Shown here: piece after piece, positions 41,087 to 46,313 of the stretch | Numbering within the stretch: the first letter of the stretch is position 1 | Layout: the number at the start of each line of letters is the position of its first letter | Source of the DNA: Marinitoga litoralis | GTDB lineage: Bacteria > Thermotogota > Thermotogae > Petrotogales > Petrotogaceae | Direction: 5' to 3' | Length of the DNA stretch: 64,000 bases | NCBI RefSeq assembly: GCF_016908145.1 | Contig: NZ_JAFBDI010000008.1 | Coordinates: 1 to 64,000, forward strand | The notes under the pieces: generated by a model | Database searches by the model: none | Seen by the model: only the letters and a program-made list of their open reading frames with translations | Told to the model about the DNA's origin: nothing | Program-made: the position numbers and the translations under genes

Positions 41087-42169
41087 ATGTATTATGGAGA
41101 TAGTTTATTAAGAAAGTTTTTAACTTCAATTATTTCACCATATATAAGAAAAAAATATAATATCAAAGTTGTTGGAGAAATTCCTAAACCACCATTTTTA
41201 TTTATAGCAAATCATACACATATACTGGATGGTTTATTTGTTCAATCTATAATTCCTTATCCTATTAGTTTTGTAATGGCAGGAGGAACTTATTATAATA
41301 AATTGGCTAATCCTTTTTTTAAACATTTCAAATTTATTCCAAAACAAAAAGGTGTTCCTGATATAAAAACGGTCAGAGATATTTATAGAGTGTTGAAAAA
41401 TGGAGGGATAGTAGGACTTTTTCCAGAAGGTTCTACTACATGGTCTGGAAATTATCAACCTGTACCGTCTGGAACGGATAAGTTATTAGATAAAATAAAA
41501 GTCCCCATTTTGGCAGCAAAAGTTCATGGAGGTTATTTATCCAAACCAAGATGGGCAAAAAAAGAAAGAAAAGGAAGTATTATCATAGAATTAAAAACAT
41601 TTAGTGATTCAACAGCTTTAGAATATATTAAATATAACGAATGGGATTGGCAAGAAAAACATAAAGTTAAATATTATGGAGATAAAAAAGCAGAAGGTTT
41701 AGAAAGAATTATGTGGTTTTGTGATAAATGCAATTCATTTAATTCAATAAAAGCTAAAGATAATATAGCTAAATGTACTAACTGTTCTAGTGAATATGTA
41801 GTTGATGATTATGGATATATAAATGGAAAAAGAATTGATGATATTATATATAACCAAAAAGAAAAATTGAAAGAATATAATAGCAAATATATGGTTTTAG
41901 ATATAGGAATTTTAGAAGAAAGAGAATTATTTAAACCAAAATTATTGAATAAAGAAAAGGGTAATATAGAAATTTTTGATTATGGAATAAAATTTAATAA
42001 AAATATATTCGAATTTGAAAAAATAAAAAATGGCGTATGTTTTGTATCAACTATTTTTGAGTTTATATATGAAGATAAGGATTATAGAATTAAGTCAGAA
42101 AATTATAGTTATCTATTGTATAATATCTATAAAATAAGGAGTGGAAAAAATGTACATATCGATGGTTGA
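41087..42169 (+). CDS. Phospholipid/glycerol acyltransferase with a C-terminal zinc ribbon
   Basis: A 360-residue protein. The N-terminal part (about residues 1-200) is a PlsC-type acyltransferase with the catalytic HX4D motif in NHTHILDG (about 44-51) and the second motif FPEGSTT (about 113-119); such enzymes acylate lysophosphatidate or related glycerides at the membrane. A four-cysteine zinc ribbon follows (FCDKCNS then KCTNCSS, about 205-231), then an unrecognised C-terminal part. The ribbon is unusual for the family. It overlaps the start of the gltS-type gene by 20 nt. Confidence 0.85.
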   Translation: MYYGDSLLRKFLTSIISPYIRKKYNIKVVGEIPKPPFLFIANHTHILDGLFVQSIIPYPISFVMAGGTYYNKLANPFFKHFKFIPKQKGVPDIKTVRDIYRVLKNGGIVGLFPEGSTTWSGNYQPVPSGTDKLLDKIKVPILAAKVHGGYLSKPRWAKKERKGSIIIELKTFSDSTALEYIKYNEWDWQEKHKVKYYGDKKAEGLERIMWFCDKCNSFNSIKAKDNIAKCTNCSSEYVVDDYGYINGKRIDDIIYNQKEKLKEYNSKYMVLDIGILEERELFKPKLLNKEKGNIEIFDYGIKFNKNIFEFEKIKNGVCFVSTIFEFIYEDKDYRIKSENYSYLLYNIYKIRSGKNVHIDG

Positions 42170-43475
42170 TGATTTCTTTTGGATCTCTATCTTTTTTGGC
42201 ATTGCAATATTATTAAAAAGATTTATTCCAGCCCTACAAAAATTTGTTATTCCAAATTCAATACTAGCAGGGTTTATTGGGTTTTTAATGGGACCTAACC
42301 TCCTTCATTTAATTGATTTAGATATAGATGGATTAGGGAGAATAATTTATCATCTAATGGCTATTGGGTTTATAGCTTTAGCATTGAGAAATGTTGAAAG
42401 TAGAGGTAAGTATGGTAAAGCAGGATTTATAATAGTTTCTACATATTTATTTCAAGGTATATTAGGAGTATCTATAGCTAGTTTGTTTTACTTATTTGAT
42501 AAAAAAACTCCAATTCCAATTGGATATATAGTTCCATTAGGGTTTGGTCAAGGTCCCGGGCAAGCATTTTCTATAGGTTCTCAATGGCAATTATTAGGAT
42601 TACATAATGGTAGTGCTGTTGGACTAGCTATTGCAGCAGCAGGATTTGGTTGGGCGACAATTGGAGGTTTGATAATATTAAATATATTATTAGCTAAATG
42701 GAAAAAAGATAAATCAAAGGTAGTAGTTCATAAGAAAGAATTAGTTGTAAAGGATTATGAATTTTCTGATATGGATGGATTAACTATTCAATTTGTTTTA
42801 ATAGGGGTAGTTTATGCTATTACATATTTTTTAATAAAAATGCTTACAGAGTATTTGAATACATTAGGTAATATAGGACACACATTTGGTACAGTTTTAT
42901 GGGGATTTCATTTTGTTTTTGGTGCAATTGTTGCAATGATTTTTAGAAGTGTATATGTTAAATTAAGAGAGAAAAATATAGCTAAAGAAAATTATATAAA
43001 TAACTTTTTATTACAAAGAATATCTGGTGCAGTTTTTGATTTTATGGTTGCAGCATCTATTAGTGCAGTATCTTTAGCACGAATTAGGGAATATTTCTGG
43101 CCTATCTTTTTTATTACATTAACTGCAGGTATTTTAACTTATTTCTATGTAATGCTTTTAACAAAAAAGGTAATTGTAAAAAATGAAGTGGAGAATAGAA
43201 TTGCATTTTTTGGAATGTTAACAGGAACAATTTCTACAGCTATGGCATTATTAAGAGAAGTTGATCCAGCTTTAGAAACAGGAGCTGCAGAAAATTTAAT
43301 TTTTGGAAGTGGAATTTCTCTAATGATAGGATTTCCATTAATAGCTATATTAAATTTACCTGCACTATATTTAACTTCAGGAAAGATTATATATAATTTC
43401 TATGGTTTAGGATTAATGATAGCCTATAATTTTTTATTATTCTTTATTTTCTTTAGAAAACCAAAAAATGCTTGA
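42150..43475 (+). CDS. gltS: Sodium:glutamate symporter family (GltS/ESS) transporter
   Basis: A 441-residue membrane protein with 10-12 helices. The two inverted halves and the re-entrant glycine-rich loops of GltS are visible (GFGQGPGQAFSIGSQW, about residues 130-145, and GMLTGTISTAMALLREVDP in the second half). Known members take up glutamate with sodium. The loop sequences differ from E. coli GltS, so another anion substrate is possible. ATG at 42150 follows AAGGAGTGG; the upstream GTG lies inside this site. The promoter of the next operon overlaps its end. Confidence 0.82.
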   Translation: MYISMVDDFFWISIFFGIAILLKRFIPALQKFVIPNSILAGFIGFLMGPNLLHLIDLDIDGLGRIIYHLMAIGFIALALRNVESRGKYGKAGFIIVSTYLFQGILGVSIASLFYLFDKKTPIPIGYIVPLGFGQGPGQAFSIGSQWQLLGLHNGSAVGLAIAAAGFGWATIGGLIILNILLAKWKKDKSKVVVHKKELVVKDYEFSDMDGLTIQFVLIGVVYAITYFLIKMLTEYLNTLGNIGHTFGTVLWGFHFVFGAIVAMIFRSVYVKLREKNIAKENYINNFLLQRISGAVFDFMVAASISAVSLARIREYFWPIFFITLTAGILTYFYVMLLTKKVIVKNEVENRIAFFGMLTGTISTAMALLREVDPALETGAAENLIFGSGISLMIGFPLIAILNLPALYLTSGKIIYNFYGLGLMIAYNFLLFFIFFRKPKNA

Positions 43476-43500
43476 CTTTTTAAATAAAATATGATACAAT
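43472..43500 (+). promoter_or_regulatory. Promoter of the aromatic leader peptide and ABC transporter
   Basis: TTGACT (43472-43477) and TACAAT (43495-43500) with a 17-bp spacer, overlapping the gltS stop codon. The transcript would begin near 43507, some 20 nt before the leader ATG. Confidence 0.75.
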
Positions 43501-43529
43501 AACTTAAAATTTATTACGAGGTGTTTAAA

Positions 43530-43658
43530 ATGGTAACTCAAAGATTAATAAAAAATGTAAAATTAAATGAATTAATAAATTTAAATAGCTATTATTATTG
43601 GTATGGAAAGGGCATCCACAAGATGACCTCCATACCTGTTTTGTCATATGCTAGGTAA
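43530..43658 (+). CDS. Leader peptide with Tyr-Tyr-Tyr-Trp-Tyr (attenuator control peptide)
   Basis: A 42-codon frame with Shine-Dalgarno GAGGTG (43518-43523) and ATG at 43530. Residues 20-28 read SYYYWYGKG, with three Tyr codons, one Trp and a further Tyr in a row (43590-43604); the peptide ends SYAR and a TAA stop at 43656. It is followed by an intrinsic terminator and an ABC transporter of a family that includes tryptophan importers. This is the design of a trp- or phe-type leader: a ribosome starved for charged tRNA-Tyr or tRNA-Trp stalls at residues 21-25 and changes RNA folding downstream. The peptide itself need not have a function. Confidence 0.8.
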   Translation: MVTQRLIKNVKLNELINLNSYYYWYGKGIHKMTSIPVLSYAR

Positions 43659-43705
43659 GGAAAGGTCAATTAAGGTGGATGCCATTAAGGCATCCACCTT
43701 TTTTT
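43600..43705 (+). promoter_or_regulatory. Transcription attenuator with competing antiterminator and terminator
   Basis: Terminator: AAGGTGGATGCC (43672-43683) pairs with GGCATCCACCTT (43689-43700), then T7 to 43705. Antiterminator: GGCATCCAC (43611-43619) pairs with GTGGATGCC (43675-43683), enclosing an inner stem of GACCT/AGGTC (43625-43629/43663-43667), CC/GG and TACCT/AGGTA (43633-43637/43653-43657). Pause-like stem: GGTATGGA (43600-43607) pairs with TCCATACC (43629-43636) and competes with the inner stem. A ribosome stalled on the Tyr/Trp codons covers GGTATGGA and so favours the antiterminator. A ribosome at the stop codon covers the inner stem and lets the terminator form. Confidence 0.78.
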
Positions 43706-43775: not shown

Positions 43776-44711
43776 ATGAAAAAGGCATTATTTGTATTAT
43801 TTGTATTATTTGTATCTTTAAGTTTTGCTTTAACAGTAGGTATTACACAAATTGTAGATCATCCAGCATTAAATCAAGTTAAAGATGCAATTATTAAAAC
43901 AGTTAAAGATGAAAATCCTGATGTAGAAATATTATTTCAAAATGCACAAGGTTCATATCAAAATGCCGTATCTATAGCCCAAGAATTTAAAAATTCAGTG
44001 GATATAGTAGTTGCAATTACTACTCCAAGTGCTCAAGCAGCTGTTAATACAATAAAAGATAAACCAGTTGTTTTTTCCGCAGTAACAGATCCAATAAGTG
44101 CAGGATTAATAAAGAAGTTTGGAAAAAATGATGGAAATGTTGTAGGGTTAAGCGATTTATTGCCTGTTAATGTACATTTGTCATTATTAAAAAAGATATT
44201 TCCAAATGCAAAAAACGTGGGAATTATATTTAATCCAGGAGAACAAAATTCAATAACATTATTAGAATTATCCAAGAAATTTTCAAAAGATTTAAATTTG
44301 AATATTGTAGAAATACCAGGTACAACTTCCTCTGAAATGATTACATCATTGAATACAAAAATAAACAGCATAGATGTAGTATATATTTTTACAGATAATT
44401 TATTAGCTTCAACTATGGAAAGTGTAGCAGCTATTTTAAATGAAAATAATATTCCATCAATTTCAGGAGATATAGAATTATCTAAACAAGCAGATAGTGT
44501 AATAGGTTTTGGATTTGATTATTATTCTTTAGGACTTGAAACCGGGAAAATGGTTAATGAAATTATTAAAGGTAAGAAAACTTCTGAATTAGAATCAAAA
44601 ACTATGGATATGGATGCATTAGATTTATTAATAAATTTAAAATCTGCTAAAAAGTTTAATATAGTAATACCAGAATCATTGTTGGATATTGCAGATATAG
44701 TTTTGAGGTGA
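43776..44711 (+). CDS. ABC transporter substrate-binding protein, TrpX/ABC_sub_bind family (probable aromatic amino acids)
   Basis: A 311-residue exported binding protein with signal peptide MKKALFVLFVLFVSLSFA. The mature part starts TVGITQIVDHPALNQVKDAI, the typical opening of the ABC_sub_bind family, which includes the tryptophan-binding TrpX of streptococci. Further family segments are PVVFSAVTDPISAGLI, NVVGLSD and IPSISGDIELSKQADSVIGFGFDYYSLG. No lipobox is present. Substrate: family plus the Tyr/Trp-coding leader upstream favour tyrosine and/or tryptophan. It lies 4 nt before the permease gene. Confidence 0.87.
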   Translation: MKKALFVLFVLFVSLSFALTVGITQIVDHPALNQVKDAIIKTVKDENPDVEILFQNAQGSYQNAVSIAQEFKNSVDIVVAITTPSAQAAVNTIKDKPVVFSAVTDPISAGLIKKFGKNDGNVVGLSDLLPVNVHLSLLKKIFPNAKNVGIIFNPGEQNSITLLELSKKFSKDLNLNIVEIPGTTSSEMITSLNTKINSIDVVYIFTDNLLASTMESVAAILNENNIPSISGDIELSKQADSVIGFGFDYYSLGLETGKMVNEIIKGKKTSELESKTMDMDALDLLINLKSAKKFNIVIPESLLDIADIVLR

Positions 44712-44715
44712 TTTT

Positions 44716-45708
44716 ATGGAAGAAATAATAAAGCAAGGATTAATACTATCAATATTATCATTAGGGGTTTTTACATCATTTAAAATAATTGATATTCCAG
44801 ATTTAACAACAGATGGTTCATATGTAATTGGAGGAGCAGTTACAGTATTGTTATTACATAATAATGTATATTGGTTATTTGCTTTAATAATAGGTGGTTT
44901 AATAGCGGGTTTTTCAGGGTTTATCACGGGATTAATACATACAAAAACTAAAATAAACCCTTTACTTGCAAGTATATTAGTAATGATAATGCTATATTCT
45001 ATAAATATTAGAATAATGAATGGTCCTAATATGTCCTTGCCTAAAGTTTCTGAAGAATCATCAGTTAGTTTATCAGGTACAAAATTAGATTTTCTTTTAG
45101 ATAATAATCAAAATGATGTCCTTTTAGGTGAAAATTCAAAAAATATTTTTATTAACCCATTTGAAGAAAATGCATTATTAAAATTATCAATCTTTGTATT
45201 TATAGTCTTTTTATTGTATTACCTATTTTTAAAAACAGAATTGGGAACATTATTAAGAGCTTTTGGTTCAAATAAGCATGGGGTGTTGTCATTAGGGATA
45301 AATCCAAACATTCTAAGTATTTTAGGGTTAACTATAGGGAATTTTTTATCAGGAATTAGTGGTGGATTATTTTCTATGTATGCAGGATTTGTAGATGTAA
45401 ATATGGGCCAAGGTATGTTAGTAACAGGGTTAGCTGCAGTTATTTTGGGAGAAATAATATTTAAAAAAGACTTTCTTTTTAAAATTCCAGCACCATTAAT
45501 TGGTGGAATATTATATCAAATAGTTATTAGCTTAGTTATTAAATATGGATATAACATAGGATTTAAAGCTAGTGATTTGAAAATGGCAACTGCATTATTT
45601 ATTATCATTGTTATAGCTACAAGAAATATGGAGGTGAAAAAATGGTTGAACTCAAAGATATCACTGTCATTTACAACAAAGGAGAAAGTAATGAAAAAAT
45701 TGGCTTAA
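44716..45708 (+). CDS. ABC transporter permease (TrpY-like)
   Basis: A 330-residue permease of the branched-chain-type (LivH/RbsC-like) fold with 8-9 helices. Family features are IPDLTTDGSYVIGGAV (about residues 29-44) and GNFLSGISGGLFSMYAGFVDVNMGQGM (about 209-235). An unusual polar loop lies at about residues 105-150. Its C-terminal 67 nt overlap the start of the ATPase gene in another frame. It belongs with the binding protein 4 nt upstream. Confidence 0.88.
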   Translation: MEEIIKQGLILSILSLGVFTSFKIIDIPDLTTDGSYVIGGAVTVLLLHNNVYWLFALIIGGLIAGFSGFITGLIHTKTKINPLLASILVMIMLYSINIRIMNGPNMSLPKVSEESSVSLSGTKLDFLLDNNQNDVLLGENSKNIFINPFEENALLKLSIFVFIVFLLYYLFLKTELGTLLRAFGSNKHGVLSLGINPNILSILGLTIGNFLSGISGGLFSMYAGFVDVNMGQGMLVTGLAAVILGEIIFKKDFLFKIPAPLIGGILYQIVISLVIKYGYNIGFKASDLKMATALFIIIVIATRNMEVKKWLNSKISLSFTTKEKVMKKLA

Positions 45709-46313
45709 ATAATTTTAGTTTAAAAATAAATGATGGAGATTTTATTACTATTATAGGATCAAATGGTGCAGGTAAAACGACATTGTTTAAAGTGTTGATG
45801 GGTTTAGTAAAACCTATTAGAGGAAAATATTATATTAATAATAATGATGTTACAAATGCAACTCCTTTTCAATTATCAAAAATAATAAGTATAGTTTATC
45901 AAAACCCTGATATGGGAGTTTTCCCTGATTTAACTATAAAAGAAAATCTTATACTAGGTTCAAAAAAAGGCATGAGGTTTTTAAAATTTGGGAGATTACC
46001 TTCTTTAGAATTATTAAAATCTTTAAATATGGGATTAGAAAATAGGTTGAATACAAAAGTAAAAGAGTTATCAGGAGGTCAAAAGCAAGCATTAGCTTTA
46101 ATTTTAGCTACAATATCAAAACCAAAACTGTTATTATTAGATGAACATACAGCAGCATTAGATCCAAAAGCTACAGAAAAGATTATGGAGTTAACTTTGA
46201 GAATAAATAAAGAATTTAATATAACAACATTGATGATATCACATAATACTTTAGTAGTTTCTAAATTTTCTGAAAAAATAGTGAGAATAGAAAATGGATG
46301 TATAGCCGCCTAA
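45642..46313 (+). CDS. ABC transporter ATP-binding protein (TrpZ-like)
   Basis: A 223-residue ATPase. Walker A is GSNGAGKTT (about residues 40-48), the signature is LSGGQKQALAL (about 143-153) and Walker B is LLLLDEHTAALDP (about 164-176) with the H-loop in MISHNT. The ATG follows GGAGGTGAAAAA and lies 67 nt inside the permease gene. It completes the three-gene importer under control of the attenuator at 43600. Confidence 0.9.
   Translation: MVELKDITVIYNKGESNEKIGLNNFSLKINDGDFITIIGSNGAGKTTLFKVLMGLVKPIRGKYYINNNDVTNATPFQLSKIISIVYQNPDMGVFPDLTIKENLILGSKKGMRFLKFGRLPSLELLKSLNMGLENRLNTKVKELSGGQKQALALILATISKPKLLLLDEHTAALDPKATEKIMELTLRINKEFNITTLMISHNTLVVSKFSEKIVRIENGCIAA

What the first reader, a model, noticed from the sequence alone, without database searches (positions are those of the whole stretch)
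43472..43705. Tyr/Trp leader-peptide attenuator controlling an amino-acid ABC importer
A 42-codon leader with Tyr-Tyr-Tyr-Trp-Tyr is followed by three mutually exclusive RNA pairings and a 12-bp terminator with T7, then a TrpXYZ-type importer. The inner stem nests exactly between the arms of the antiterminator, giving a long alternative hairpin. In streptococci the related importer is controlled by a T-box, so a leader peptide that reads both Tyr and Trp would be a different solution.
Basis: partly seen in the sequence, partly recalled or inferred. Interest (0 to 1): 0.92.

Follow-up and report, generated by a model that had tools for sequence, protein, structure and literature searches.

The report
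Aromatic leader-peptide attenuator for amino-acid importer
A short peptide gene packed with tyrosine and tryptophan codons sits in front of an aromatic amino-acid importer and very probably lets the cell switch the importer on only when those amino acids run short; the same kind of switch occurs before related importers and biosynthesis genes across a whole group of heat-loving bacteria.

Summary
A 42-codon leader ORF (43530-43658) with Tyr-Tyr-Tyr-Trp-Tyr codons overlaps a hairpin, a two-part antiterminator and a 12-bp terminator with T7, followed by trpX-, trpY- and trpZ-like genes. All 47 trpX genes found in 40 of 103 Thermotogota genomes carry an aromatic leader ORF and a terminator. Cognate antiterminator pairing is far stronger than cross-species pairing. 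Nascent-RNA folding gives antiterminator with a ribosome stalled on the codons, terminator with one at the stop codon. Where trpX is duplicated, some leaders read only Phe, Tyr or Trp (5 of 11 genes; 0 of 36 in single-copy genomes), hinting that codons track importer specificity. No expression data exist here. The mechanism is classical ribosome-mediated attenuation. I found neither attenuator control of trpXYZ nor such a phylum-wide regulon in print; a subscription paper that I recall reported Thermotogales attenuators.

The parts
43472..43500 (+). candidate sigma-70-type promoter TTGACT-N17-TACAAT with extended TG; the -35 overlaps the stop of the upstream gene
   Evidence: 10 of 12 matches; number of such sites in the region is not above shuffles, so position is the argument
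43517..43524 (+). ribosome-binding site (ACGAGGTG)
   Evidence: a purine-rich SD stretch precedes the leader start in most relatives, and is off the contig in L037
43530..43658 (+). 42-codon leader peptide ORF MVTQRLIKNVKLNELINLNSYYYWYGKGIHKMTSIPVLSYAR, stop TAA 43656-43658
   Evidence: aromatic leader ORF present at 47 of 47 trpX genes
43590..43604 (+). regulatory codons Tyr-Tyr-Tyr-Trp-Tyr
   Evidence: composition across relatives
43600..43607 (+). stem 1, 5' arm (overlaps the Trp and last Tyr codon)
43629..43636 (+). stem 1, 3' arm
43611..43619 (+). antiterminator outer helix, 5' arm, inside the loop of stem 1
   Evidence: cross-species control
43625..43636 (+). antiterminator inner helix, 5' arm (overlaps the 3' arm of stem 1)
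43654..43667 (+). antiterminator inner helix, 3' arm (contains the leader stop codon)
43675..43683 (+). antiterminator outer helix, 3' arm = part of the terminator 5' arm
43672..43705 (+). intrinsic terminator: 12-bp stem 43672-43683/43689-43700, loop ATTAA, T7 at 43699-43705
   Evidence: terminator present at 47 of 47 trpX genes
43776..44711 (+). trpX-like substrate-binding protein (311 aa)
   Evidence: NF041285 ABC_SBP_TrpX 1e-62 but 212 bits against a cut-off of 390; PF04392 4e-64; PDB 3lkv, 6hni, 3lft
44716..45708 (+). trpY-like permease (330 aa)
   Evidence: PF02653 1e-30
45642..46313 (+). trpZ-like ATP-binding protein (223 aa), overlaps trpY by 67 nt
   Evidence: PF00005 6e-30; no family names a substrate

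Best explanation
This is a ribosome-mediated transcription attenuator that couples charging of tRNA-Tyr and tRNA-Trp to expression of a TrpXYZ-type aromatic amino-acid importer. RNA polymerase starts at 43472-43500 and a ribosome begins the 42-codon leader. If Tyr- or Trp-tRNA is short, the ribosome stops on codons 21-25 and covers the 5' arm of stem 1. The following RNA then folds into the inner and outer antiterminator helices before the terminator's 3' arm has emerged, and transcription reads into trpXYZ. If both tRNAs are charged, the ribosome runs to the stop codon at 43656-43658 and blocks the inner antiterminator arm; stem 1 re-forms behind it and the terminator forms. Shown by computation: anatomy, conservation, cognate pairing, and the predicted fold for each ribosome position. 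Inferred: stalling, termination, and the importer's substrates. Similar leader attenuators with other aromatic codons control trp and aro operons in related genomes.
For: (1) 47 of 47 trpX genes in 40 Thermotogota genomes have a short ORF with an aromatic run, SD-led as a rule (for L037 the SD is off the contig), and a terminator. (2) Antiterminator duplex z below -2 in 42 of 47, mean z -4.5; cognate mean -21.1 against -14.2 kcal/mol across genera, 0 of 20000 permutations. (3) Nascent folding to 43696: outer antiterminator 0.99 with a stalled ribosome; 0.00, and terminator 0.95, with a ribosome at the stop codon. (4) Codon identity fits the downstream genes: trpE leaders Trp-only in 12 of 13, DAHP-synthase leaders Trp-only in 0 of 37. 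(5) Controls: 0 of 24 terminators on the antisense strand of the 60 fetched trpE/DAHPS upstream regions have such an ORF. (6) Solved TrpX relatives bind Trp, Tyr or Phe (PMC6816091, passages). (7) The genome (99.89% complete) has no TrpA, prephenate dehydrogenase or prephenate dehydratase match, with 14 of 14 control genomes positive, so it probably must import aromatics.
Against: No expression, termination or translation data. At equilibrium the full-length RNA prefers the terminator in every ribosome state, so the switch has to be kinetic; without any ribosome the nascent RNA also favours the antiterminator between 43680 and 43692, so behaviour of an untranslated leader is not predicted. Stem 1 in the window is no more stable than shuffles (z -1.4), and 11 of 47 stem 1 folds miss z -2. 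RNAalifold on the MAFFT alignment recovered only the terminator. The promoter motif is not above chance by count.
Confidence: 0.9

Rival explanations
1. An aptamer-type riboswitch or protein-bound attenuator in which the short ORF is incidental.
For: Some nucleotides in the Thermotogaceae-type leaders are almost invariant, which could mean a binding site.
Against: No Rfam family matches the window. The nucleotide sequence differs strongly between families while the aromatic codons and cognate pairing stay. Codon composition changes with the downstream gene, which an aptamer would not require.
Confidence: 0.04
2. A T-box that reads uncharged tRNA directly, as at trpXYZ of Streptococcus suis.
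For: Same importer family and same signal; T-box control shown in S. suis (PMC9382623, passages).
Against: No Rfam match at gathering score anywhere in the window. The whole leader from promoter to terminator is about 200 nt, against 461 bp for the S. suis T-box, and is largely filled by the ORF.
Confidence: 0.01
3. An ordinary 5' terminator or small ORF with no regulatory role, such as the 3' terminator of the upstream gene.
For: The upstream gene ends at 43475 and the leader promoter is not above chance by count.
Against: Conservation at 47 of 47 trpX genes, cognate antiterminator pairing, and absence of such ORFs at control terminators.
Confidence: 0.03

Closest known systems
trp, ilv, thr, his and phe leader-peptide attenuators of enterobacteria (recalled; classical Yanofsky-type attenuation)
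   Same: Short leader ORF with codons of the end product; pause hairpin, antiterminator and terminator; read-through when the ribosome stalls. Leaders reading more than one amino acid are known (ilv, thr; recalled).
   Different: Here the controlled gene is an ABC importer, the codons are Tyr and Trp (Phe in many relatives), and the antiterminator's outer 5' arm lies in the loop of stem 1, with a second helix nested inside.
T-box of Streptococcus suis trpXYZ (PMC9382623, passages)
   Same: Same importer family, same aim (induction on Trp limitation), same output (premature termination).
   Different: There a structured RNA reads uncharged tRNA-Trp directly through one UGG specifier; here a translated leader reads two tRNAs. 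No Rfam T-box match.
uORFC-13-1 motif before aroF in Acholeplasma (PMC8632094, section 26 read)
   Same: Aromatic (Phe) codons in a short ORF before a terminator and a DAHP-synthase gene.
   Different: Found only in Acholeplasma and environmental sequences; that section names no trpXYZ or trpE target; no tie to this element tested.
Solute-binding proteins SP1069 (Trp), CD0873 (Tyr), VC_1101 (Phe) (PMC6816091, passages; PDB matches)
   Same: Homologues of the controlled TrpX.
   Different: Window TrpX has Asp where CD0873 has Glu-263 and Tyr at the second position, nearer to the Tyr binder than to the Trp binder by that rule; untested for Asp.

Membership tests
ribosome-mediated leader-peptide transcription attenuator | translatable leader ORF with SD | tested here: met
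   ORF with SD in window; ORF at 47 of 47 trpX genes (SD of L037 off contig). Translation itself not measured.
ribosome-mediated leader-peptide transcription attenuator | conserved run of codons for the relevant amino acids | tested here: met
   Tyr in 42, Trp in 41, Phe in 41 of 47 trpX leaders; 12 of 13 trpE leaders Trp-only
ribosome-mediated leader-peptide transcription attenuator | intrinsic terminator between leader and first gene | tested here: met
   47 of 47
ribosome-mediated leader-peptide transcription attenuator | antiterminator exclusive with terminator, and its formation dependent on ribosome position | tested here: met
   by prediction only, and kinetic rather than at equilibrium
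ribosome-mediated leader-peptide transcription attenuator | read-through responds to charging of the cognate tRNA | not testable with these tools
   needs RNA-seq or reporters
[quoted passage not shown]
   no Rfam match in the window at gathering score
TrpXYZ tryptophan importer (NCBIfam NF041285) | substrate-binding protein above the curated equivalog cut-off | tested here: not met
   212.1 bits against 390; relative, not assigned as the tryptophan-specific equivalog
TrpX-like aromatic amino-acid importer | ABC_sub_bind protein homologous to solved Trp/Tyr/Phe binders, with BPD_transp_2 permease and ATPase in one gene cluster | tested here: met
TrpX-like aromatic amino-acid importer | binds aromatic amino acids | not testable with these tools
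   pocket residues only

The most novel reading that the evidence does not exclude
Thermotogota run much of their aromatic amino-acid economy (trpXYZ import, trp operon, common aro pathway) through a shared type of leader-peptide attenuator in which the codon run is an exchangeable sensor cassette. When the importer gene is duplicated, each copy's leader is re-coded to the amino acid that the copy now carries, so leader codons can be read as a record of transporter specificity.
Probability: 0.55. Interest if true: 0.75.

Novelty: new member of a known kind. Interest (0 to 1): 0.62.

Why it matters
It shows a leader-peptide solution, present at every trpX gene found in the phylum, for an importer that Streptococcus suis controls with a T-box. 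It suggests that amino-acid attenuators are not mainly a proteobacterial trait; a 2013 survey with Rfam models (PMC3766115, passages) proposed a gamma-proteobacterial origin with few transfers. It also gives a cheap way to predict transporter substrates: in genomes with several trpX copies, leaders reading only Phe, only Tyr or only Trp make testable predictions about each importer, and a Trp-only leader before an aldehyde:ferredoxin oxidoreductase cluster predicts a tryptophan-linked role for it.

Tried and rejected
Rfam at gathering threshold: no match. A MAFFT alignment of 37 leaders folded by RNAalifold gave only the terminator; I replaced it by a cross-species mispairing control and a covariance model built from 11 well-aligned leaders. 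That model also scored many plain terminators: L080-L086 were read and rejected as ordinary; most of its weaker genome matches were not read. Synonymous-change test of the codons: too few variable columns to be informative. Four apparent leaders before DAHP synthase in the window's genus (L162, L166, L169, L170) were rejected as tails of longer ORFs. Two weak trpX matches (G039; G040:C36) were dropped before counting. The L014 antiterminator looked weak because my window cut it; with a better window it is -17.3 kcal/mol. My notebook says 14 trpE leaders; the correct count is 13. Idea that leader codons simply mirror auxotrophy: rejected, since the genome lacks TrpA, PDH and PDT but its leader reads no Phe, and genomes that keep these enzymes have mixed leaders.

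Full report
What is there. A promoter-like site at 43472-43500 is followed by an SD sequence, a 42-codon ORF at 43530-43658 and five consecutive aromatic codons (Tyr-Tyr-Tyr-Trp-Tyr, 43590-43604). Three RNA features overlap: stem 1 (43600-43607/43629-43636), an antiterminator of two nested helices (outer 43611-43619/43675-43683, inner 43625-43636/43654-43667), and a terminator (43672-43683/43689-43700) with seven T. Then come a substrate-binding protein, a permease and an ATPase of the TrpXYZ kind. The binding protein is homologous to solved proteins 3lkv, 6hni and 3lft, whose ligands are Phe, Tyr and Trp (PMC6816091, passages). It stays below the curated cut-off for the tryptophan-specific family (212 of 390 bits). 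The antiterminator duplex is reached by 0 of 200 shuffles. The promoter motif and stem 1 of the window sequence taken alone are not above chance.

Conservation. A protein search over the 103 held Thermotogota genomes found matches in 41; dropping two weak matches leaves 47 trpX genes in 40 genomes. I read the upstream DNA of all 47. Each has a short ORF with a run of aromatic codons, and an intrinsic terminator lies between it and trpX. Nucleotide sequences differ widely, yet each leader's antiterminator arms match each other: over 21 representatives the cognate pairing averages -21.1 kcal/mol against -14.2 between genera, and none of 20000 random re-pairings does as well. Not every single cognate pair ranks first; ranks run from 1 to 13 of 21. 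Antiterminator duplexes reach z below -2 in 42 of 47 and stem 1 folds in 36 of 47. Controls: none of 24 terminators on the antisense strand of the 60 trpE and DAHP-synthase upstream regions has such an ORF, and in the window only this one of 20 terminators has a strong aromatic ORF.

How it would work. I folded the growing transcript with different parts covered by a ribosome. With the ribosome on the aromatic codons, stem 1 cannot form; the inner antiterminator is in place by 43670 and the outer helix by 43680, and it holds (0.99) until 43696. With the ribosome at the stop codon, the inner arm is blocked, stem 1 stands at 0.95 and the terminator is at 0.95 by 43696. With no ribosome, stem 1 dominates to 43676, then the antiterminator is favoured to 43692, then the terminator. 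At full length and equilibrium the terminator wins in all cases, so the decision must be kinetic, as I recall it to be in the classical E. coli systems. What an untranslated leader does is not settled by these calculations.

Beyond the importer. A covariance model from 11 Thermotogaceae-type trpX leaders, run on all 103 genomes, also hit the DNA before other genes. In genome G056 a leader with Phe, Tyr and Trp codons precedes a DAHP-synthase, EPSP-synthase and further aro genes, and a Trp-only leader precedes a trpE-like and trpG-like operon. In G002, Trp-only leaders precede trpE and, separately, a ferredoxin/aldehyde:ferredoxin oxidoreductase cluster, and a Tyr/Phe leader precedes DAHP synthase and prephenate dehydrogenase (families). 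Direct searches for trpE and DAHP synthase followed. Of 30 fetched trpE loci 13 have an aromatic leader plus terminator; of 30 fetched DAHP-synthase loci 29 do. A second set of 19 DAHP-synthase loci gave 8 more, after rejecting four tails of longer ORFs; 13 further DAHP-synthase matches were not read. The codons fit the genes: 12 of 13 trpE leaders read only Trp, 0 of 37 DAHP-synthase leaders do (Fisher 1e-10, though the genomes are related). In the window's own genome the DAHP-synthase gene has no such leader.

Paralogues. Four genomes have two or three trpX copies, and the tree places these as lineage-specific duplications in three lineages (supports 0.99, 0.993, 0.997). By the strict script, leaders that read a single aromatic amino acid occur in 5 of these 11 genes and in 0 of 36 single-copy genes (p about 3e-4 by hand). 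Calling the contiguous core by eye adds two more (G045a, G006c), 7 of 11. The binding pocket gives a weak second sign. At the position where CD0873 uses Glu-263 to hold the tyrosine hydroxyl, 44 of 47 proteins have Asp. The three with Phe instead (G006a, G007a, G018b) all have leaders without Tyr codons, while two others without Tyr codons keep Asp (p 6e-4, but G006a and G007a are orthologues, so two independent events).

Physiology. The window genome, 99.89% complete, has no match for tryptophan synthase alpha, prephenate dehydrogenase or prephenate dehydratase, while 14 of 14 control genomes do. It probably cannot make the three amino acids, so this importer may be a main supply. That the leader reads Tyr and Trp but not Phe is not explained by this.

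Names. That the window is a Marinitoga-like member of Petrotogaceae is my inference.

Prior work. Full-text searches of the held open-access library found no description of an attenuator at trpXYZ or of an aromatic attenuator regulon in Thermotogota. PMC9382623 (passages) shows a T-box at S. suis trpXYZ. PMC3766115 (passages) used only Rfam attenuator models and suggested a gamma-proteobacterial origin. PMC4833913 (passages) names Thermotogae only as a group with too few genomes for its distance plots. PMC2965389 (passages) describes leader-peptide/T-box swaps in other families. I recall, without having seen it here, that Vitreschak and colleagues (FEMS Microbiol Lett 2004) predicted some amino-acid attenuators in Thermotogales; I did not look that paper up, and the T-box survey of 2008 is not held, so part of this may already be in print.

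Verdict. The surprise lies in its breadth and in leader codons that change with the gene they serve.

Noticed in passing
L078 (G002:C43:300-4800), leader at about 205-310: A Trp-only leader (SAWWWHRS) and terminator precede two 4Fe-4S proteins and an aldehyde:ferredoxin oxidoreductase, with a LIV-type substrate-binding protein further on (named by eye); predicts a tryptophan-linked role for this cluster.
   Followed up: partly
L033 (G007) and L036 (G006): Three tandem trpX genes, each with its own leader: Phe-only, mixed, and Tyr-type.
   Followed up: partly
window 42141-43475: 444-aa membrane-like protein directly upstream with no Pfam or NCBIfam match at 1e-3; looks like a glutamate/sodium symporter by eye (recalled).
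   Followed up: no
L014 (G045) about 1390-1480: Two terminators in tandem between the Trp-only leader and trpX.
   Followed up: no
G000 whole genome: No match to TrpA, prephenate dehydrogenase or prephenate dehydratase although a DAHP-synthase gene is kept.
   Followed up: partly
window 31476, minus strand: A weak second hit of the leader scan (MQEHYIEYIHKFYP) before a terminator; probably chance.
   Followed up: no
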